Below are positions 1-55,875 of a stretch of DNA of 56,102 bases, in pieces (the first letter of the stretch is position 1; every line of letters starts with the position of its first letter). The position numbers and the translations under genes are program-made. Under the pieces are notes generated by a model. It was not told where the DNA came from. It ran no database searches and saw only the letters and a program-made list of their open reading frames with translations. The DNA lies in the IMG/VR virus record IMGVR_UViG_3300022198_005692, positions 1-56,102 of that record. One strand, given 5' to 3'. The stretch is from a virus.

Positions 1-2456
1 TCTCCTTCTTTTATTGGAAAATCTAGACCTCCATGATTTCTTCCGGCTCCGAATCCGTCTCCTTGGGTGTATGAAGTTAAAGACTTTCCAGAGACAGTTA
101 CATATTTTCCCGCAAGTTCCTTAAGTTGTGCTTCAGTTAGAGTACTACTGGTGGATTCTTGAATATGTACATGTGGTCCAGTACTACGTCCAGTAGAACC
201 TACTCTGCCGACAAATCCGTCAAACCCACCAGACCCACCAGACTCATTAGACCCTTGAGTAGGTTGTGGAGAAGGAGTGGCGGTTCCAGCATTCCGAGCT
301 TTTTCTTGTGCTATGGATCTCATTAAGGGATCCATGAGTTGTTTATATAATCCCTCCTTTTGAGCAGTTGATCCAGAAGTAACTATTCTTTGTACATCTG
401 GGCTCATCCTCCCCACTTCTAATATCGTTCCACCTCTTTTAGGAACACCAAGTCCATCTCTATGATTAACACTAAATGAACCATACGAAGATGAGAGGGC
501 GTCATCTAATTGCCAAATTCTTTTTCCTGCAGTGGGTGGTATTACACCGCTATGTCCATTTGTTTCATCATTATGAATCTCTATTATTTGCTTACCAGCG
601 CCCGCTGCCTGTGAGGTTTTACTAAATTGAGATCGTGGGTCATTTTCTGGAATATTTGATGATGATGGTAGATACACCTCAATATAGTCAGAGATGCCAT
701 ATGCCTGGGCATTACGTTGTGCCCATTTCACCAATTCTATATTCAACTCTCTTTCATTAGGCGCCCCAGATGGAAAATCAGCATGACCAGCCATTAATAA
801 AACCTTAGATGGTTTTGCAGTTGTGGTTGCTTTCCAGTCTTTTAATGACTGTTTTGGAGCGGGGTTTACTACATTATTACCCGGGCCAGTAGGGGCGTTC
901 TTATTTCTTACATCAGAAACCGTCTCCAATGGAGCGGCAAAATTCCAGATGAGTTGTGGATCGATGGTAACTTCTGAGTTATCATGGCCATTGATATAGA
1001 ACCTAGTCAATTCTTTCTTGTCACTAGTCGAGGAGCCAATTGGCTGGGAGGGTTTTACCTCATCGCCATTCTTGATCTTTACCTCAGAGAGATTGGTGGA
1101 TTCTTGGTAGATCCAGCGGCTAAAACACTTCTCCGACTTATCGTCTTTACAGACCTGGAACCACATCTCAGTCTTAATGACAACTCTCCCCTCCTCCTGT
1201 GAGGCACTCTCTACCTTGCCAGGAAGATAGGAGATAGCACTTGTGCCATTAGGAGCTATGCCATAAAGATTTACCTTGGTGTATCTTTTATTTTCCACAG
1301 GAGAGTTACTCCCTGCCCAGCCATATCCATCGGATCTTGGGCCCTGGCATCTCTTCTCACAGGGTTTGAATAGATCTGGGAAGGTAACTTTTTTAACTTT
1401 CTCAAGAGCCTTTATTCTTTTCTCTTTAATAACCTCCTTGAGGGAGTATTTTTCAGAGGCGAAACTTGCAGAGACATACGGATCAGCGTCGTTGATAGTT
1501 GCGCCGGTTTGGGTGTTATTCTGACCCCAGGTCACCGGTGGCTCGCCATCGATGGTATAGGCTTCGTAGAGACCCTTACCCAAATAGAATACAGTACAAC
1601 TTCCGGTGATCTCTCCTCGGCTGCAAACACTTACCCTATTTCCGTACTCCTTGATAGGGAGGGAAAGCATAGATCCACCGGTAGCACCAATAATTCTCTT
1701 CATCGCCTCATCGGGCGTAACGCCCTTGTAGATGAGTTGGCGAGGGATCGTGTAAGGGGAGTTTGCCGATCCTCCCGGTGGGACACAGAAACTTGCCTTA
1801 TATCCGCTCTCTTCAGCGATCTTTTTTAAAGCCTCCTCAACTGTCATTCCTTCATCAAACTTAACATTGATGAGGTTTTGGTTGAAGACAACTGCACGTG
1901 GATCCGTGCCACTCAGTGTCACTGATGGGAAGTTTGAACCATGATTGATACTGATTCTATTTACCTTGAAGTAATAATCAGTACCAAAAGCGGTCCCATT
2001 TACATCGTACCATAACGATATGATTATATGGGCATAAGTATCCTTCAGAGGTCTAGAGCTATCCGCCGATGAGGAGAGGGACTGGTCATCTATGGACGAG
2101 TAGGGATAGCACTTATCCTTGATTGGATCTTCGCCCTCTCCGCATGGTCGCATGATGATATTATTTGTCTGCATGGTGTTAGATGCAGACCACATAGAAG
2201 CGGCATCAAACAAAGCAGGCCAGGCTATCCCTGTCAGATATGGATCTGAGAGGGTAACCTGGCATTTTGATTGAGATAGACCAGAGGTATATGCCTGTCC
2301 TGAGGTATTGCCTTGGGAGTTTGCTGAGGAAAAAGTATTTATACCCTTGAGTTTAACACTTAGATCCTGAATCTGTCTTTCTTCAAAGACAACAACCCTA
2401 TCAGATTTGAAGGGTTTATAGGCTACTCTAGCTCGGCAACGATACAGACTAGACAC
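1..2456 (-). CDS. Baseplate-hub-like protein with amidase and M23-type cell-wall hydrolase domains (3' end outside window)
   Basis: Continuous minus-strand frame of 818 codons that leaves the left edge. I chose the GTG at 2456-2454 because AGG lies 6 nt upstream and an in-frame TAA lies just before it. Residues 1-530 look like a tail/baseplate hub; residues near 195-245 have an STN/secretin-like pattern (TVEEALKKIAEESGY). An Amidase_3-type domain follows: KVLLMAGHADF (H558), NERE (E568/E570), EIHND (H628) and ILEVG (E680) match the zinc and catalytic positions of N-acetylmuramoyl-L-alanine amidases. After a Gly/Ser linker come GSTGRSTGPHVHIQ (H762, H764) and later NHGGLDF (H808, D812), the two zinc motifs of M23/LytM endopeptidases but in reversed order. 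Likely role: local peptidoglycan cutting by the tail tip during DNA entry. Domain calls are firm; the hub assignment is inference from the N-terminal part and context. Confidence 0.8.
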   Translation of the reverse strand, partial: MSSLYRCRARVAYKPFKSDRVVVFEERQIQDLSVKLKGINTFSSANSQGNTSGQAYTSGLSQSKCQVTLSDPYLTGIAWPALFDAASMWSASNTMQTNNIIMRPCGEGEDPIKDKCYPYSSIDDQSLSSSADSSRPLKDTYAHIIISLWYDVNGTAFGTDYYFKVNRISINHGSNFPSVTLSGTDPRAVVFNQNLINVKFDEGMTVEEALKKIAEESGYKASFCVPPGGSANSPYTIPRQLIYKGVTPDEAMKRIIGATGGSMLSLPIKEYGNRVSVCSRGEITGSCTVFYLGKGLYEAYTIDGEPPVTWGQNNTQTGATINDADPYVSASFASEKYSLKEVIKEKRIKALEKVKKVTFPDLFKPCEKRCQGPRSDGYGWAGSNSPVENKRYTKVNLYGIAPNGTSAISYLPGKVESASQEEGRVVIKTEMWFQVCKDDKSEKCFSRWIYQESTNLSEVKIKNGDEVKPSQPIGSSTSDKKELTRFYINGHDNSEVTIDPQLIWNFAAPLETVSDVRNKNAPTGPGNNVVNPAPKQSLKDWKATTTAKPSKVLLMAGHADFPSGAPNERELNIELVKWAQRNAQAYGISDYIEVYLPSSSNIPENDPRSQFSKTSQAAGAGKQIIEIHNDETNGHSGVIPPTAGKRIWQLDDALSSSYGSFSVNHRDGLGVPKRGGTILEVGRMSPDVQRIVTSGSTAQKEGLYKQLMDPLMRSIAQEKARNAGTATPSPQPTQGSNESGGSGGFDGFVGRVGSTGRSTGPHVHIQESTSSTLTEAQLKELAGKYVTVSGKSLTSYTQGDGFGAGRNHGGLDFPIKEG

Positions 2457-2468
2457 ATCTTACCTGGA

Positions 2469-3191
2469 TTATGAAACAGCAGTTACTTCAGCGAAGGCAA
2501 GTGTATCGCCATTATCCGCTCCGGCAGCAACAATGGCTACAATTTGACCAACACTAAATCCAGCTCCGCCGGCAGCGATTGTATCAATACTAATCACTTC
2601 ACCAGCAGCGATAGATACCACGCCTTGACCATCAGTATATCCGGCGGGGTTGGTATCTTCGGTGGAAGTAAAGGTTACTTGGATTACGCCATCACCAACT
2701 CCATCGATAGTATCCGTATATCCACTACCTCCATCGAGGAGGGTTAGAGTTTGAATCACTCCGGTGGGCGCTTGAGGAGCAGGGACTACTTCAGCGATGA
2801 CAGCGGAAACAGTCTCAGCGAGGTTGAAGGTAGCTACCATGAAGTGGAAGTCACCATCGCCTTCTAGACCGACGTAGCGAGTGATGTTGACAAGTTGGTC
2901 GTTGAGAGCAGTTTTGTCAGCAACGGGAACGTTGGCATTAGCAACAAGTGCCCCTACAACCAACTCAAGAGTTGCATAGGCAAACTTTTTAGCCTCGAAG
3001 CCCATTGAAGGTCCGCAGGCGACAAAAGCATTCTTGGCCGCTATACGAGCTGCGGGGGTATTTGCCCCGGTGTTATAAGAAGAGACTAGAGGGGAGGCAA
3101 TAGCCTCTCCTAGGAACTCTTGGAAGGAGATCTTATATTCAAACTCCATACCGATCTTGCGATGAAGACCAGTGTTAAGTACGGTTGCCAT
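2469..3191 (-). CDS. Putative virion structural protein
   Basis: 240 residues, no recognised catalytic motif. Residues 1-130 form an alanine-rich domain (MEFEYKISFQEFLGEAIASP, then ITRYVGLEGDGDFHFMVATF). Residues 145-240 are Gly/Thr/Val-rich beta sequence with GGSGYT and GGAGFS motifs, a style common in small virion-surface proteins of aquatic phages. It is directly upstream of the hub/hydrolase gene on the same strand (12-nt gap), so it is probably co-transcribed and a tail component. A GTTTAAAG element that overlaps the stop codon of the kinase gene lies 32 nt from its ATG. Exact role unknown. Confidence 0.7.
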   Translation of the reverse strand: MATVLNTGLHRKIGMEFEYKISFQEFLGEAIASPLVSSYNTGANTPAARIAAKNAFVACGPSMGFEAKKFAYATLELVVGALVANANVPVADKTALNDQLVNITRYVGLEGDGDFHFMVATFNLAETVSAVIAEVVPAPQAPTGVIQTLTLLDGGSGYTDTIDGVGDGVIQVTFTSTEDTNPAGYTDGQGVVSIAAGEVISIDTIAAGGAGFSVGQIVAIVAAGADNGDTLAFAEVTAVS

Positions 3192-3215
3192 AGGGGTAAT
3201 ATTCCTATATCTATT

Positions 3216-3231
3216 CAGTTATCTTTAAACC
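3216..3231 (-). promoter_or_regulatory. GTTTAAAG-type promoter candidate for the 3191 gene
   Basis: Minus strand reads GGTTTAAAGATAACTG. The first 15 bases are identical to the plus-strand element at 5127-5141 before the 1165-residue gene. It overlaps the TAA stop of the kinase gene (ATG GTT TAA), which suggests selection for the DNA sequence there. Confidence 0.55.
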
Positions 3232-3788
3232 ATGTTAGCCAAAGAGAAATCTGCCGAGGTAGGGGAAATAATCTCATACTTAGAGAGGAGAGAACGGTTA
3301 TAGAGGTAATCCTTCATATATGCATAGTACTCCTCGTGTTCTTTCTCCCGAGCCTTAAGTTGCATATCGAGATAATAATCAGAGCATCCAGGATAGAGAG
3401 TGTTCAACTCGATGATATGGTGTGGTCGACTCCACTCCCAAGTACGCTCAATGAGGAATACTTTAATCATGTAGCTATATGCAGCGAAATATGACTCGGC
3501 GGAGTTAGCCCATTCTTCAGAGATCTCAAGATGACGGCGGAACTTTTCATAAAAACAGACTTCCGAAAACCCACGGTCACAAATTACTACTTGGGCTTTT
3601 TCCTCAAGGGCAGATTGGAACGGATCGAGGTATTGCTGGATGGGGGTATGGTGATGGGGTTGAGGTCCAGAGAAGTGAAGAGTACGGACGCATATATCCC
3701 GAGAGATTAACTCATTCTGAGTGTTCTTAACAATGGTGGATTTGCCAACTCGATCGGCTCCGAGTACGACGATGGTGCGAGGATACAT
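3225..3788 (-). CDS. P-loop nucleotide kinase, thymidylate-kinase-like
   Basis: 187 residues. The Walker A loop GADRVGKST is at residues 10-18, straight after a beta strand (TIVVLG). CDRGFSEVCFYEKF, with D71-R72, corresponds to the DR(Y/F) motif of the thymidylate/deoxynucleoside kinase fold. Family role: phosphorylation of deoxynucleosides or their monophosphates for phage DNA synthesis; the substrate cannot be read from sequence. The length fits this family (about 180-220). The C-terminus is compact, ending ADFSLANMV. Its promoter looks host-like (extended -10 at 3815-3823) while neighbouring structural genes carry GTTTAAA elements, so early expression is likely. Confidence 0.75.
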   Translation of the reverse strand: MYPRTIVVLGADRVGKSTIVKNTQNELISRDICVRTLHFSGPQPHHHTPIQQYLDPFQSALEEKAQVVICDRGFSEVCFYEKFRRHLEISEEWANSAESYFAAYSYMIKVFLIERTWEWSRPHHIIELNTLYPGCSDYYLDMQLKAREKEHEEYYAYMKDYLYNRSLLSKYEIISPTSADFSLANMV

Positions 3789-47583: not shown

Positions 47584-50388
47584 ATGGCCAATCCAATTAG
47601 AATCAATGCCGCGACATTGAATAGGCCGGGGGTCTTTGTTGCTCAGGCAACAAGTGGCTCTCTTCCGCAACCCATCGCTACACATGCCGTGGGATATATC
47701 TTTGGCACTACTCCCGCCGAAGATTATTATGGAAAAGATGCTATTGATGCATATTCGTATTTAGAGCCTTATAAGCCAACTCAGATAGCATCCGCTGATG
47801 ATTATCTAGAGAAAATTGGGGCAACTGGCGTCCCTATCGGCAATAAGGGGGCCCTCGCCAGTTACGATAGTGTCAAAGCATTCTTTGATAATGTTGGAGT
47901 AAATGGTATTCTCTACTTTACCAGAGTAACTCCTACTCCAGAAACTGTAGTTGATATCGGAAAATCTACTGCTGGCACTGGATATAATGCATTTGCTATT
48001 AAAGTAAATGGTAGATATTTCGGTACTCCTATTGGTATCTACGACGCTGATAATACTGAGATCAAAGTTATTACAACAACTGGACTAGATCAGATTGACA
48101 ATGCTAGAGATGTATATACATATCTCTCTGGCAATGGAGACGGATTTGCTGATTTTTATAAAATCGAGCAAAATGCTATTGAAGCATTAGCCGGTAAATT
48201 CAGAATTTTTTCAAAGGACTCCCGTAGAGTACCAGAGATTGAAGAATTTCACGCTTATAAGTTCAGTAATTCTGAATACGCGCAAAAGATTGATCTACTT
48301 CAAGAAACTGGAGTCATATCATTTTATACTTCTGTCAAGGAAATTAACTTCCGTTGTGTATCTCGTGACCAGGCAACTAAAGAAGGTATCCTCCATCTTT
48401 CTGGAGCTCAATTAAGTTCTTTCTTTGCTGCACAGGATACTTATAATGATATTGCAACCCAGCAATCTGATATTCTTAAGGCTTTCCTTAATGATCAAAA
48501 GATTTATACAACTGGAAATATCCCCGACGACAAGTACGTAGCCATCTCAAAAGACCTTAGTACAAATACGACTAAGTGGGCTGATGCTGATGCGGTCTAT
48601 TGGCAATATGATGCTGGTACCAACGCCTTTACAAAAGTCGTAAGTGGTACTGATGCTATCGTACCAAGTGGAAATCCGGTTACCCGCCAAGGATATCTTC
48701 CTGATTCAGTTCAAGTATTCTACCTTAATGTAGCAGGAGAGAATAGAGCCATCATCGTTAATGGTTCAACTCCAGAAGAATTAACAACTGGGCTAGTCAA
48801 TGAAATCAAAGCAGTTCTTACTGAAAAGGATTTAATTGACTATTATACTGTAGAGGCGGTTTCGACAGAAACAGGAAAACTCTCAGATACTAAGTACATC
48901 CCCAACAATGGCCTTGACACAGATAGTGATCTGGTTTCAGCAGTTGGCAATCCTTACATCCGCCCTGAACTTTCTGAAATTTTCCTATCTGGAACTGTAG
49001 GAATAAGTGGCGGAGTAGTTACTGGTACTAATACATTATTTAGTACAGAATTAGCAAATGGTGGGACATTTGTTGCTAATGGAGTAACATTTACAATTGC
49101 TTCTATCTCGAGTAATACTCAGATGACAGTAACTCCTAACAATGTTACAATTGATCCAGGAGCACAAATTACTACAACTAATAAGTCGTCAGCCAATGGA
49201 TTCTATTCACATGACTACGTTCTAAGGGTAAAAATCACTTCCAAAAACGGAGTAAGTTCGCCTGTATACCCCGGCATCAATCGCTCTGGAATTTCTGATC
49301 CTAACGTAGTAAAACTAATTTCTACTGCTCAGAACGCTGGTTACGATTCTTATAAAGTATCCGCTACTGCAAAAGCCAATGATTTTGTCTATGCAATCGA
49401 GCAAGGAGTAGGCTCAGCAACATTAGCCCCGGGATTCTTATTTGCACCAGAAGCATATTCAGTGCTAACCTATGAGGCAGGAACAGGAGACTTTGCAAGT
49501 GCTTCCGAAGCTCGCCAAGAGAGGTTAAAGATTACGCAGACTCTGGTTCGCGCTGCTGAGGGCAAAATTGGAACGACTGAAGGAATTACTTCTACACAAC
49601 ATGTCGCTCTGATTGATTGTGGAGCTGACGAAGTTTCACTAGGTGATGTTCAAGATGAACTAGATCTTATCAAAGGCACAGTAGGGGTGCCATTCGGTCA
49701 CGCCGCATATTACGCTCCTTATGTGAAGAATCTAGACGATCGCTATGTTGCTCCTTCAGGATATGTAGCTGGTATTGCCTGCTCCAGATACATTAATGAA
49801 GGTTTCCAACAACCTCCTGCTGGAGCACGTTATCCACTACGTGGCGCCGTTGGACTTAAGTTCGATATCTCTGCCCAACAACAAGAAGTTACTTATGCCC
49901 TTGGTTTGAACCCAATTCGTTCACTTCCTAATCGCGGCATTGTAACATGGGGAGCAAGAACCCTCTCTACAAATCCTCTGTTTAAGTTTATTAACACCCG
50001 CGTAATTCTTAACGTCTTAGTTGATGTTCTTGGACGTAGTTTTGATGATATCTTGTTCGAGCAGATTGATTCAGCTGGTACCGTATATGCAAGAGTTAAG
50101 TCTATTGCCTCTCAGGTGTGTGGACAATTCTTCCGTCAAGGAGCATTATTTGGTTCAAGACCAGAACAGGCCTATTTAGTAGTCTGTTCATCTGCCAATA
50201 ATGATAATACATCTCTTGAACAGGGCACAGTAAGACTAGACGTTTACGTGGCCACAAGCCCAACTTTAGAACGTTTACTTGTTACTGTCGTTAGAACACC
50301 TGCTGGACAAGTGGTTCAGTTGAGTGATTCATTCTCCAGAAATGAAGAGAGATTTAGTAATCTTCTCAATACAACAAACGTATTCTGA
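47584..50388 (+). CDS. Contractile tail sheath protein
   Basis: 934 residues. The N-terminal sheath start is typical: NRPGVFVAQATSGSLPQPIA then VGYIFGTTPAEDYYG. The conserved C-terminal half is clear: LIDCGADEVSLGDVQDEL, YAPYVKNLDDRYVAPSGYV, GAVGLKFDISAQQQEVTYAL, LNPIRSLPNRGIVTWGARTL, FKFINTRVILNVLVDVLGRS, FRQGALFGSRPEQAYLVVCS and VRLDVYVATSPTLERLLVTV. It is longer than T4 gp18 (about 660) because of a beta-rich insertion near residues 470-530 (SGGVVTGTNTLFSTELANGG then TVTPNNVTIDPGAQI). Forms the contracting outer tail. Confidence 0.97.
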   Translation: MANPIRINAATLNRPGVFVAQATSGSLPQPIATHAVGYIFGTTPAEDYYGKDAIDAYSYLEPYKPTQIASADDYLEKIGATGVPIGNKGALASYDSVKAFFDNVGVNGILYFTRVTPTPETVVDIGKSTAGTGYNAFAIKVNGRYFGTPIGIYDADNTEIKVITTTGLDQIDNARDVYTYLSGNGDGFADFYKIEQNAIEALAGKFRIFSKDSRRVPEIEEFHAYKFSNSEYAQKIDLLQETGVISFYTSVKEINFRCVSRDQATKEGILHLSGAQLSSFFAAQDTYNDIATQQSDILKAFLNDQKIYTTGNIPDDKYVAISKDLSTNTTKWADADAVYWQYDAGTNAFTKVVSGTDAIVPSGNPVTRQGYLPDSVQVFYLNVAGENRAIIVNGSTPEELTTGLVNEIKAVLTEKDLIDYYTVEAVSTETGKLSDTKYIPNNGLDTDSDLVSAVGNPYIRPELSEIFLSGTVGISGGVVTGTNTLFSTELANGGTFVANGVTFTIASISSNTQMTVTPNNVTIDPGAQITTTNKSSANGFYSHDYVLRVKITSKNGVSSPVYPGINRSGISDPNVVKLISTAQNAGYDSYKVSATAKANDFVYAIEQGVGSATLAPGFLFAPEAYSVLTYEAGTGDFASASEARQERLKITQTLVRAAEGKIGTTEGITSTQHVALIDCGADEVSLGDVQDELDLIKGTVGVPFGHAAYYAPYVKNLDDRYVAPSGYVAGIACSRYINEGFQQPPAGARYPLRGAVGLKFDISAQQQEVTYALGLNPIRSLPNRGIVTWGARTLSTNPLFKFINTRVILNVLVDVLGRSFDDILFEQIDSAGTVYARVKSIASQVCGQFFRQGALFGSRPEQAYLVVCSSANNDNTSLEQGTVRLDVYVATSPTLERLLVTVVRTPAGQVVQLSDSFSRNEERFSNLLNTTNVF

Positions 50389-52826: not shown

Positions 52827-52857
52827 TAGATATCATTATTAAGGAGAACAAACTATC

Positions 52858-54739
52858 ATGATGAATTTAGATCAGGTCCGTGAATAATACGCGGCCTCTT
52901 TAGAATCAAATCCATGATAAAATAAGAAACATGATTAAATCCGGTATATACCTTATCAAACATAAATCTATTAAAAATTTAGTTTATGTGGGTAAGTCTG
53001 TTAATATCCATAAAAGATGGGAACAGCATAAAACCGGATTTAGATCTGCTAAAAAACTCCAAGAAGCATTTAAAAAATACGGAATCGATTTATTTGAATT
53101 TTCTATCCTAGAGGAAATAAATAATCCTAAAGAAATGGGAAAGAAAGAAACTCAATATATTGATTTTTATGATTCTTGGAAGAATGGATTAAATGGTTCT
53201 AGAGCCGGTGGTGAGTGGGGATCATACGCGAGAAGTTTTGTAAAAAACTCAAGTTTTAAACATTATAACAAAACAGACGCGCACAAAATCTCCTCAAAGA
53301 AAGCCGGTTCGATAGGCGGATTAAGAGCAAAATCAAATCTCTATAAAATGTTCCATGAAAATAAAATTTATATCTTCATTGGAACAACAACACCGGCTCA
53401 GTTTTTTAATATAAATCCAAATACATTTAAAAACTGGGCGACAGCAGGTAAAAACTATAAAGTTTTAAATAAATCATCAATAGAGATTTTGGGCAAAGCA
53501 AAAAACTTTGATAACATCGCTCCTAATACGATCTATCAAGAGGAAAAATCGGGTGAATTGCTGGAAGTCTTCAGAAGGGCATAATCCCCAAAAGATAATC
53601 AGCAGCCAAGCCAAGGAAGGGCTTAGTTTCCTTGGAAGGTTCAGAGACTAGGAGAATGAGTCCCAACAATAATTTCTCCCACGAGTGCCCGACATAAGAA
53701 AATAATTTCTTATGATGATATAGTCCGACACTCCGAGAAATCGGAGATCAGAGATAAAGAGCTCTGAATTAACAGATCGGTAATTGACCCTATTCTTACG
53801 CAACTCGCCCAGGGCTATAAGAACTCTGAAGGCGTAGCCACATTCTTCGCTCCTTCGGTATCTATGAATACCAGAGCTGGACGTACACTCGTTTTTGGTA
53901 AGGAGGCTTTTGCGGCTCAGTCGTTCCTCCGCGCTCCTGGAACTAACATCCAGAAGATCCAGAACGAATTCGGAACCCGTTCGTTCGCTCTCCGCCAGGA
54001 AGCGATCAGCTGGGAAATCGCCGAGGAAGTCGCTGCTGAAGCCAAGAACGGCGCTGCTCAAATTGACCTCCGTCAGTTTGCTGCTAAGGACGCTGCTAAT
54101 CGCCTCATGCAGTCTTGGGAAGTTCAGGTTGCTGATATCGTAACCGACTCCGCTCAGTACGAGACCGGTAACGTTCTCGATCTCTCCACCTATAATGGTG
54201 GTGCTGATCAGTTCAACAGCCCAACTGCTGACGTTGAGGTCCTCATGGACGACGCCAAAGAGCAAGTTCGCTCGCAGATCGGTGTCTATCCTAACAAGAT
54301 GGTGATCTCACCTGACGCCTTCAATGCCCTCAAGCGTAACAAGCGCATCCGTGACTTCATGCAGCGCGGTGTGCTCGTGGATGAGAAGACCCTAGCTCAA
54401 ATCTTCGGTCTTGATGAGATCCGTGTTGCCCGTAGACTCAAGCTCAACCAGTCCACTGGTGCTCTTGAGAACATCTACAACAACGTTGCTGTTCTCTTCT
54501 ACCATCCTTCGGGAGCAACTGATGGTTTCATGCCCGCTCTTGACGCCAACTATGGCAACCCTGCTTTCGCCTATACCTATACTCTCAGTGGTTATCCTAT
54601 CGCCACTCCTGAGCGTTTTAATATTGAGCGCAGAGTATTCACCGGCGACATCCTCGTTGAGCGTAGCTTCGAGCTCGTCGGCATGGGTGAAAATGGCAAG
54701 TGTGGTTCTGGTTTCATCTTCAACAATCCTGTTGCCTAA
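52858..54739 (+). CDS. Major capsid protein, two exons split by a group I intron
   Basis: Model: exon 1 52858-52881 and exon 2 53780-54739, 327 residues after splicing (MMNLDQVR joined to VIDPILTQLAQGYKNSEG). AAGGAG at 52841-52846 is 11 nt from the ATG. Without splicing the frame ends at GAA TAA, two codons past the junction, so capsid protein needs splicing. Exon 2 has RAGRTLVFGKEAFAAQSFLR, EVAAEAKNGAAQIDLRQFAA, QIGVYPNKMVISPDAFNAL and DEKTLAQIFGLDEIRVARRL, an HK97-fold type pattern like the smaller myo/sipho capsids rather than gp23. Placement after protease and cement supports the call. Exact junctions come from the P1 and P10 pairings and remain to be confirmed. Confidence 0.9.
52882..53779 (+). 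ncRNA. Group I intron in the major capsid gene
   Basis: 898 nt. Features: exon end CCGT (52878-52881) pairs with GCGG (52891-52894), giving a P1 with the required U-G pair at the splice site and loop GAATAATAC; TAC in that loop can pair with exon-2 start GTA (P10). Typical core: AATCAGCAGCCAAGCC near 53596, P7 strands GACTA (53646-53650) and TAGTC (53721-53725), a 9-bp hairpin CATAAGAAA/TTTCTTATG (53693-53714), a GAAA-tetraloop stem CTCCGA/TCGGAG (53731-53746), and TCAGAG/CTCTGA (53748-53767). The last base is G (53779). The endonuclease gene sits between P1 and the core, in the P2 region. Confidence 0.9.
52931..53584 (+). CDS. GIY-YIG homing endonuclease in the capsid-gene intron
   Basis: 217 residues. 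SGIYLIKHKSIKNLVYVGKS (residues 4-23) gives GIY and the YVG form of YIG; R29 in KRWEQH is the expected catalytic Arg. KLQEAFKKYGIDLFEFSILE and KKETQYIDFYDSWKNGLNGS complete the fold, with the metal-binding Glu in KKETQ. The C-terminal part is Lys-rich DNA-binding sequence (SIGGLRAKSNLYKMF, NINPNTFKNWATAGKNYKVL). Likely cuts intronless capsid genes to spread the intron. Lies wholly inside the intron RNA. Confidence 0.92.
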   Translation: MIKSGIYLIKHKSIKNLVYVGKSVNIHKRWEQHKTGFRSAKKLQEAFKKYGIDLFEFSILEEINNPKEMGKKETQYIDFYDSWKNGLNGSRAGGEWGSYARSFVKNSSFKHYNKTDAHKISSKKAGSIGGLRAKSNLYKMFHENKIYIFIGTTTPAQFFNINPNTFKNWATAGKNYKVLNKSSIEILGKAKNFDNIAPNTIYQEEKSGELLEVFRRA

Positions 54740-54761: not shown

Positions 54762-54787
54762 GAGGCCCCTAACCGGGCCTCTTTTTT
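54762..54787 (+). terminator. Rho-independent terminator after the capsid gene
   Basis: GAGGCCC (54762-54768), loop CTAACC, GGGCCTC (54775-54781), then TTTTTT. Ends the 46491-54739 operon. Confidence 0.9.
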
Positions 54788-55100
54788 ATGTGATAAGTTC
54801 TTCTATTCTCTTTTTTAGAGAAGATATTTTCTGGATATTTATATCAAAAATATTTTTCTTTAGGTACTCGGTCTCACCAAACATCATATCCATACGAATC
54901 TCAACCAGTTCCTCAGAGTCCAAGTAATCAATGATCTTCTGATGTAGATCCTTCAACGTTTGTTGATCAACCTCTGCCATAGAATCTAGTGCATTTTGGA
55001 TATAATTAACTGTCTTCTTGATTACAAAAGTATCTACCCTGAGGTCTCTATTAATGGCCAAATCTAGTGCTTTTAAGTAGGCTTGGTAAAGAGAACTCAT
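54786..55100 (-). CDS. Small helical protein of unknown function
   Basis: 104 residues, almost all helical: YQAYLKALDLAINRDLRVDT, VNYIQNALDSMAEVDQQTLK, MMFGETEYLKKNIFDINIQK. No recognised family. Ends on the T-tract of the capsid terminator from the other side. A -10-like GATATCATAAT lies close upstream, overlapping the end of the next gene, with only 4 nt between the two genes. Confidence 0.55.
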   Translation of the reverse strand: MSSLYQAYLKALDLAINRDLRVDTFVIKKTVNYIQNALDSMAEVDQQTLKDLHQKIIDYLDSEELVEIRMDMMFGETEYLKKNIFDINIQKISSLKKRIEELIT

Positions 55101-55104
55101 ACTA

Positions 55105-55875
55105 TTATGATATCATAGACCAACCCTTATATTCTTTTTTCTTACCACTAGCAACTTCCGATAACTTACTTTTATTGAGTGATAAAAAATTAAATTTTTC
55201 AACTAATTCGAATATTGCTAAATTTTTTTGAATTCCGTATAAGTCATGTTTCCAAGTTCTTAACTTGCAATTTGGATTTTTTCTTCCAGTATACATTCCT
55301 TTAGTTGATTCTGACATTTTCCTTTTTGCCTCTTTAGAATGTCCAACTCTATATAGCGGATGATTTTCACCTTTAAAAGCGCAGGAAATTTTTTTCTTTG
55401 TCTCCTCTGAATGCTTCCTTCCAAAGGCTTTATCAGCTATTTTCTTTCTAGTCTTTTCTGTATGTTTTTTTCCAAACATTCCATTTTTTGAACCTTTCCT
55501 AATTTCACTAAGTTTTGCTTTTGTTTCCTCAGACAGTGATTTACCTCTTAGAGCAAGAGATATTTTTTCTTTTCTTTCTTTCGTAAAAGGTATCGGTTTA
55601 TAATATCCAAAATATCCGGCATTTAAGCATAGAGGATCATTTATAAAATGTTTAATAAGTCTATATTCCACATCTCTACATTGTTTATAACCTTCTTCCG
55701 TATAATCAAATATCTCTAAAATTTGTTTTTTTGGCGTGTACACATCCCAATACCATTTATTTGTTTTAGGAGATCCAAAATACTCTTCATTAAATATTTT
55801 TTCTTTTTTACTCCCAAAATAATAAAAAGGAACTTCCTCAAAGGTTATTTTATAAATGTATATCCTAGGTTTCAT
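55105..55875 (-). CDS. GIY-YIG homing endonuclease with NUMOD3 repeats (Seg-like)
   Basis: 256 residues. Residues 4-22 (RIYIYKITFEEVPFYYFGS) give the GIY-YIG core (IYK...YYFG), and EYFGSP plus CRDVEYRLIKHF continue it. At least four NUMOD3 repeats follow (SLSEETKAKLSEIRKGSKNG, HTEKTRKKIADKAFG, HSEETKKKISCAFKG, HSKEAKRKMSESTKG), then a C-terminal HTH-like end (NKSKLSEVASGKKKEYKGWS). A free-standing mobile endonuclease 0.4 kb from the capsid gene. Confidence 0.88.
   Translation of the reverse strand: MKPRIYIYKITFEEVPFYYFGSKKEKIFNEEYFGSPKTNKWYWDVYTPKKQILEIFDYTEEGYKQCRDVEYRLIKHFINDPLCLNAGYFGYYKPIPFTKERKEKISLALRGKSLSEETKAKLSEIRKGSKNGMFGKKHTEKTRKKIADKAFGRKHSEETKKKISCAFKGENHPLYRVGHSKEAKRKMSESTKGMYTGRKNPNCKLRTWKHDLYGIQKNLAIFELVEKFNFLSLNKSKLSEVASGKKKEYKGWSMIS

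What the first reader, a model, noticed from the sequence alone, without database searches (positions are those of the whole stretch)
52858..53785. Group I intron after only eight codons of the major capsid gene
P1 (CCGT with GCGG including the splice-site U-G), P10 and core elements (P7, GAAA-loop stem, terminal helices) support an 898-nt intron ending at G53779. Reading through would add only GAA before TAA, and this stop lies in the P1 loop, so ribosomes on exon 1 would leave the intron core free to fold. Capsid output would depend entirely on splicing. The intron codes for a GIY-YIG endonuclease in its P2 region.
Basis: partly seen in the sequence, partly recalled or inferred. Interest (0 to 1): 0.68.

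Follow-up and report, generated by a model that had tools for sequence, protein, structure and literature searches.

The report
Self-splicing intron in phage capsid gene
A virus of cyanobacteria has its major coat-protein gene cut, after only eight codons, by a mobile self-splicing RNA intron; related viruses carry up to five such introns in this one gene, so they must splice RNA correctly to make their shell.

Summary
An 898-nt group I intron (52882-53779; RF00028, 90.5 bits) separates an 8-codon first exon (52858-52881) from the rest of the major capsid gene (53780-54739). The joined protein aligns without a gap to the intact capsid protein of cyanophage S-TIM5 (86.8% identity), and 71 distinct empty alleles read straight through the junction. 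Nine introns at this site support the fold with 29 compensated pairs. A GIY-YIG endonuclease gene under purifying selection sits in P2; its 3' end runs into P3-P5.

Two comparisons go further. An empty allele (L119) and an intron allele (L116) are 99% identical except for a 49-bp block at the insertion site, a homing co-conversion tract. A third contig (L077) matches L116 but lacks exactly the 873-nt intron, at the predicted splice sites.

The larger finding: this capsid gene is an intron hotspot, with seven insertion sites across relatives, up to five introns in one gene, all after GGU or CGU. Three intron-bearing contigs over 100 kb show no introns elsewhere. The window intron is a new member of a known kind; an early in-frame stop is a known general feature of group I introns.

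The parts
52842..52847 (+). Shine-Dalgarno sequence of the capsid gene (AAGGAG region)
   Evidence: Sequence; anti-SD duplex -8.2 kcal/mol
52858..52881 (+). Exon 1 of the major capsid gene, MMNLDQVR
   Evidence: Same peptide directly joined to VIDPILTQ in empty alleles, 71 distinct
52882..53779 (+). Group I intron, 898 nt
   Evidence: RF00028 90.5 bits; boundaries fixed by empty alleles, same-site introns and, for the relative L116, the spliced-form contig L077
52878..52894 (+). P1: CCGU (52878-52881) with guide GCGG (52891-52894); loop 52882-52890 holds the in-frame stop TAA 52885-52887
   Evidence: Covaries with the exon: CCGU-GCGG versus GCGU-GCGC
52895..53543 (+). P2: CCUCUU (52895-52900) with AAGAGG (53538-53543), holding the endonuclease gene in its loop
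   Evidence: Read from sequences: pair changes in L050 (CCUCUUGA/UCAAGAGG), L051/L076 (CCUCUUU/AAAGAGG), L090 (CCUUC/GGAGG); absent from ORF-less introns
52931..53584 (+). GIY-YIG homing endonuclease gene, 217 aa; 3' end overlaps P2', P3, P4, P5; stop in the P5a loop
   Evidence: PF01541 E=6.4e-12; phrog_314 homing endonuclease; dN/dS 0.08-0.18 where dS is finite
53549..53692 (+). P3: UCGGGU (53549-53554) with GCCCGA (53687-53692)
   Evidence: Invariant in 9 introns
53558..53605 (+). P4 (53558-53563/53600-53605), P5 (53567-53571/53592-53596), P5a (53577-53579/53586-53588)
   Evidence: P4 100% paired with 2 compensated pairs
53606..53639 (+). P6 (53606-53607/53638-53639) and P6a (53611-53618/53628-53635)
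   Evidence: All 8 P6a pairs have compensatory changes; P6 C-G to G-C
53646..53725 (+). P7: GACUA (53646-53650) with UAGUC (53721-53725), the guanosine-site helix
   Evidence: Invariant
53651..53679 (+). P7.1: GGAGAA (53651-53656) with UUCUCC (53674-53679)
   Evidence: Compensatory changes in 2 pairs
53694..53713 (+). P8: AUAAGAAA/UUUCUUAU
   Evidence: 6 of 8 pairs with compensatory changes
53731..53766 (+). P9 with GAAA loop (53731-53736/53741-53746) and P9.1 (53749-53753/53762-53766)
   Evidence: Compensatory changes in 8 pairs
53779..53779 (+). Terminal guanosine of the intron
   Evidence: All 24 intron examples end in G
53780..54739 (+). Exon 2 of the major capsid gene, 319 codons plus stop
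   Evidence: phrog_1005 major head protein; exon 2 alone from profile position 11, joined protein from position 3

Best explanation
This is a mobile, self-splicing group I intron that homed into the major capsid gene of an S-TIM5-like cyanophage. After transcription the RNA core folds, P1 presents the bond after CGU (52881) and P7 binds guanosine. Two transesterifications join codon 8 to codon 9 and give a normal 327-residue capsid protein. Shown here: the fold with covariation, the boundaries, the intact joined frame, a homing-type co-conversion tract in a close relative, and a contig with the exact spliced junction in that relative. Inferred: that splicing is autocatalytic, that the window's own RNA splices, and that a ribosome terminating at the P1-loop stop stays out of the core while it folds. 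Also inferred: the endonuclease, whose gene lacks a Shine-Dalgarno sequence in the window and in four relatives, is made at a low level from unspliced RNA, perhaps by re-initiation after that stop, and cuts empty alleles to spread the intron.
For: RF00028 at 90.5 bits, E=6.7e-22. 29 compensated pairs in nine introns, 0/500 shuffles as high, and all six slid controls far lower. P1 covariation through a synonymous Val codon, GUC with GCGG and GUG with GCGC. Joined protein gapless at 86.8% to S-TIM5 capsid, which is one uninterrupted CDS in the same gene order. 71 distinct empty alleles. Exon-1 final base is T in 9/9 distinct intron alleles versus 6/71 empty ones, Fisher p=2e-8, not corrected for relatedness. 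Empty L119 versus intron L116: 14 of 72 differences over 7.2 kb fall at -6 to +42 of the site, p=1e-16. L077 matches the intron allele 600/600 across the exact junction and 4714/4717 overall while lacking precisely 873 nt. Endonuclease dN/dS 0.08-0.18 where dS is finite. Single capsid gene per contig.
Against: No RNA data for the window itself. I could not confirm that the L077 sample is a metatranscriptome; if it is DNA, L077 is a precise intron-loss allele. P10 is only 3 bp in the window and 2 bp in several relatives. P9/P9.1 differ between the endonuclease-bearing and ORF-less subfamilies and are partly misaligned (71-80% of cells paired); one of the five covariation measures, further pair types, did not exceed the shuffles.
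Confidence: 0.95

Rival explanations
1. The capsid protein is translated from an internal start in exon 2 (ATG 53864) and the intron need not splice.
For: An ORF of 291 aa starts there.
Against: No Shine-Dalgarno sequence at 53864 against -8.2 kcal/mol at 52858. It would remove 36 residues that align in S-TIM5 and in PHROG 1005. The empty alleles keep the 52858-type start.
Confidence: 0.02
2. The intron is a decayed or splicing-defective copy, so this genome is a dead or artefactual allele.
For: None beyond lack of RNA data.
Against: All core helices pair. The endonuclease frame is intact and under purifying selection. The same allele recurs in two other IMG/VR contigs, L002/L095 and L085. A relative shows the spliced junction.
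Confidence: 0.03
3. The intron is a domesticated regulator: capsid production is deliberately gated by splicing (growth state, GTP, translation), not merely tolerated.
For: Up to five introns in one late gene and none detected elsewhere in three intron-bearing contigs over 100 kb. Splicing of a T4 intron is inhibited in stationary-phase hosts (discussed in PMC11878797).
Against: Most relatives have no intron (71 empty alleles). The patchy distribution and the co-conversion tract fit a selfish element.
Confidence: 0.1
4. The P1-loop stop codon is incidental and not selected.
For: Intron starts of related introns share sequence, so sites are not independent; three ORF-less site-1 introns stop only at codon 8.
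Against: 21 of 24 introns at seven sites have the stop within four codons, and all 24 within eight. Chance product for seven site representatives is 5.5e-5, not corrected for relatedness. At site 1 the stop is TAA in some and TGA in others.
Confidence: 0.25

Closest known systems
Phage T4 td intron with I-TevI (GIY-YIG)
   Same: Group I ribozyme in a phage protein gene with a GIY-YIG endonuclease; the ORF 3' end contributes to the core; a stop soon after the 5' splice site is described as usual for group I introns (PMC2988022, PMC3073962).
   Different: I-TevI lies in the P6 loop and overlaps P6a and P7; here the gene lies in P2 and overlaps P3-P5. The host gene is capsid, not thymidylate synthase, and exon 1 is only 8 codons.
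Mycobacteriophage LittleE capsid intron (PMC3706429)
   Same: Intron in a major capsid gene with an endonuclease gene; splicing and capsid N-terminus shown by experiment there.
   Different: 819 bp, endonuclease on the opposite strand and LAGLIDADG-like, unrelated phage, one intron.
Lactococcal phage Tuc2009 capsid-gene intron (cited in PMC3706429)
   Same: Group I intron in a phage capsid subunit gene.
   Different: Different host and gene; not compared by sequence here.
Twort phage gene with three introns (Landthaler and Shub 1999, title seen in the reference list of PMC6669764)
   Same: Several group I introns in one phage gene.
   Different: Three introns; the relative L083 here has five, in a capsid gene.
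Cyanophage introns: psbA of S-PM2 and S-CBWM1, DNA polymerase of Pf-WMP3 (PMC3706429, PMC8557907, PMC3428280)
   Same: Group I introns in cyanophages, some with endonuclease genes.
   Different: Photosynthesis or replication genes, not capsid.

Membership tests
Group I intron | Conserved catalytic core P3-P9 with P7 | tested here: met
   RF00028 90.5 bits over 1-253 of 253; covariation
Group I intron | P1 between exon 1 and internal guide with U-G at the splice site | tested here: met
   CCGU/GCGG, compensated to GCGU/GCGC in relatives
Group I intron | Intron ends in guanosine | tested here: met
   G53779; all 24 examples
Group I intron | P10 between guide and exon 2 | tested here: inconclusive
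   3 bp in window, 2 bp in several relatives (read)
Group I intron | Precise exon joining | tested here: met
   Joined frame equals intact homologues; exact junction in contig L077 of a close relative; not seen for the window itself
Group I intron | Guanosine-dependent autocatalysis | not testable with these tools
   Needs in vitro splicing
Subgroup IA | Extra helices P7.1/P7.2 between P7 and P3 | tested here: inconclusive
   P7.1 present with compensated pairs; P7.2 not modelled
GIY-YIG homing endonuclease | GIY-YIG catalytic domain | tested here: met
   PF01541 E=6.4e-12; motif conserved in five alleles
GIY-YIG homing endonuclease | Mobility of its intron to empty alleles | tested here: inconclusive
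   Co-conversion block -6 to +42 between L119 and L116, a relative; for the window allele the nearest empty alleles are too divergent to see a tract
GIY-YIG homing endonuclease | Cleaves the empty site | not testable with these tools
   Needs a biochemical assay

The most novel reading that the evidence does not exclude
The capsid gene of S-TIM5-like cyanophages is a dedicated group I intron hotspot in which introns have spread from site to site within the gene, each intron clade keeping its guide (GCGC for CGU sites, GCC for GGU sites), through reverse splicing or endonuclease retargeting. In some phages shell production depends on up to five separate splicing events.
Probability: 0.4. Interest if true: 0.68.

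Novelty: new member of a known kind. Interest (0 to 1): 0.52.

Why it matters
It shows that one of the most strongly expressed kinds of phage gene can tolerate, and repeatedly acquire, self-splicing introns, some leaving exons of only 24 or 36 nt. The L119/L116/L077 set is a natural before, after and spliced series for intron homing in environmental phages. The seven-site pattern, with intron clades tracking the guide sequence, makes the long-standing question of how group I introns move to new sites testable in one gene. It also warns that gene callers miss the true start of such capsid proteins.

Tried and rejected
Internal start at 53864: rejected (no Shine-Dalgarno sequence, loses conserved N-terminus). 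Second intact capsid gene elsewhere: none in the window or in five large related contigs, though all are fragments. Literature search for the sample numbers of L077, L119 and L116, to learn whether L077 is RNA-derived: nothing found. A second empty contig with the intron-type GTCCGT flank (L172) proved to belong to an ordinary empty lineage (L053-L055), so it is not evidence of splicing. MAFFT misplaced P1 of the ORF-less introns, so P1 and P2 were checked by hand. Rfam's P2 assignment inside the endonuclease gene is not right; the covarying P2 brackets the gene. A co-conversion tract in the window's own allele could not be tested, since its nearest empty relatives are too divergent. Tree support for the L083 site-2 and site-4 introns as sisters is weak (83/39).

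Full report
Observation. The sequence at 52840-53790 reads AAGGAG, ATGATGAATTTAGATCAGGTCCGT, then GAATAATACGCGG.... A group I intron core is found at 53457-53747 with 90.5 bits and E=6.7e-22, the only one in the 56-kb record. Upstream lie genes for a tail sheath, a Mu-like protease and a 161-aa protein; exon 2 matches PHROG 1005 major head protein. Exon 2 alone enters that profile at position 11; with the eight exon-1 residues the match starts at position 3 and rises from 229.1 to 236.5 bits.

Joined frame. The joined 327-residue protein aligns end to end with the capsid protein of cyanophage S-TIM5 (genus Aurunvirus) at 86.8% identity, where it is one uninterrupted CDS in the same gene order. 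In IMG/VR, MMNLDQVR runs directly into VIDPILTQ in most relatives; 71 distinct alleles have an empty site. The window and five large related contigs each hold a single capsid gene.

Same-site introns. A pattern scan for exon 1 not followed by exon 2 found further introns at the identical position. Four further alleles carry a GIY-YIG gene (L050, L051, L076 and copies, L090/L097; 873-886 nt), and four are ORF-less (L049, L082/L088, L083, L091; 298-322 nt). On nine distinct sequences the drawn structure has 29 pairs with compensatory changes (shuffled mean 17.8, 0/500 as high) and 88% of cells paired, against 27-47% when the partners are slid. P1 itself covaries: exon GUC-CGU pairs with guide GCGG, exon GUG-CGU with GCGC, through a synonymous Val codon. 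P2 brackets the endonuclease gene and also covaries (sequences). Exon 1 ends in T in 9/9 intron alleles but only 6/71 empty ones (p=2e-8).

Endonuclease. The window ORF 52931-53584 has a GIY-YIG domain and is 67% identical to its L076 relative. It is under purifying selection (dN/dS 0.08-0.18 where dS is finite). None of the five alleles has a Shine-Dalgarno sequence. Its codons EEKSGELLEVFRR overlap P2', P3, P4 and P5 and are conserved, the same kind of core overlap known for I-TevI, though in different helices (PMC2988022, PMC3073962).

Homing and splicing in a close relative. L119 (empty) and L116 (intron allele, same intron as L076) are 99.0% identical over 7.2 kb once the intron is left out of the comparison. 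Of 72 differences, 14 lie between -6 and +42 of the insertion site (p=1e-16). This is the classic footprint of homing with co-conversion of flanking exon. L077, a third contig, carries the intron-type flank and matches L116 at 4714 of 4717 positions, 600 of 600 around the junction, but lacks exactly the 873-nt intron. It is either assembled from spliced RNA (IMG/VR is, from memory, partly built from metatranscriptomes) or a precise intron-loss allele, which would most simply arise through a spliced intermediate. I could not determine the sample type.

A capsid-gene hotspot. Some relatives have introns elsewhere in the same gene. The sites are: after codon 8 (site 1), after codon 20 (2), in codon 52 (3), after codon 176 (4), after codon 194 (5), after codon 287 (6) and in codon 294 (7). 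L083 has five introns (sites 1, 2, 4, 5, 7); L088 and L091 have three each. Rfam confirms most of them; the endonuclease-bearing site-2 introns of L083 and L048 score 41 and 44 bits, below the 50-bit cut-off but with E of 1.8e-7 and 2.3e-8. All 24 introns examined follow GGU or CGU and end in G. In the three intron-bearing contigs over 100 kb every RF00028 match lies in the capsid gene. The endonucleases differ by site: GIY-YIG at sites 1 and 3, HNH-like at site 2 (E=0.006, below the Pfam cut-off), unassigned at site 5.

Spread between sites. In a tree of intron cores, site-1 introns form one clade (98/99). Introns of sites 3, 5, 6 and 7, all after CGU, form another (98/99). The site-4 intron falls among the site-2 introns, both after GGU. 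The two introns at sites 5 and 7 of L083 are sisters (96/92). This fits spread between sites within the gene, each clade keeping its guide sequence. Reverse splicing has been proposed for such spread in fungal rDNA (PMC1299323); the data here do not separate it from endonuclease-driven moves.

Translation and the stop codon. 21 of 24 introns have an in-frame stop within four codons of the 5' splice site and all within eight. This is described as usual for group I introns, where exon translation aids splicing and the stop keeps ribosomes out (PMC3073962, PMC3984707). A possible extra role, re-initiation on the SD-less endonuclease gene about 20-43 nt downstream of the stop, is my inference.

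Verdict. The finding is real and correctly read. As a single intron it is a new member of a known kind, with capsid introns known from LittleE and Tuc2009 (PMC3706429). The seven-site, up-to-five-intron capsid gene and the empty/intron/spliced series raise its interest.

Noticed in passing
L083, reverse-complement coordinates 827-3778: Capsid gene split into six exons by five group I introns (311, 913, 239, 254, 254 nt), including exons of 24, 36 and 54 nt.
   Followed up: yes
L077, L116, L119: Natural series: spliced-form contig, intron allele and empty allele, with a 49-bp co-conversion tract.
   Followed up: yes
window 55105-55875 (-): Free-standing homing-endonuclease-like gene with NUMOD3 repeats just downstream of the capsid gene, on the opposite strand; 73-77% identical copies sit downstream of some empty capsid genes (L005, L007, L031, L037).
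   Followed up: partly
L170 1458-1723 (Pseudomonas phage ZC08, KU356691.1, about 49703-49968): Apparently unannotated group I intron (RF00028 88.9 bits) between ZC08_054 and ZC08_055; 73% identical to part of the window intron over 109 nt.
   Followed up: partly
L105 and L118, codon 287 site: ORF-less introns with an unusually long P1 (exon AGAGCGU with GCGCUCU).
   Followed up: no
L088 1150-1240: tRNA gene (Rfam 61 bits) on a multi-intron relative contig.
   Followed up: no
window 54786-55100 (-): 104-aa ORF of unknown family downstream of the capsid gene; only 36% identical copies in several empty relatives, so it changes fast.
   Followed up: no
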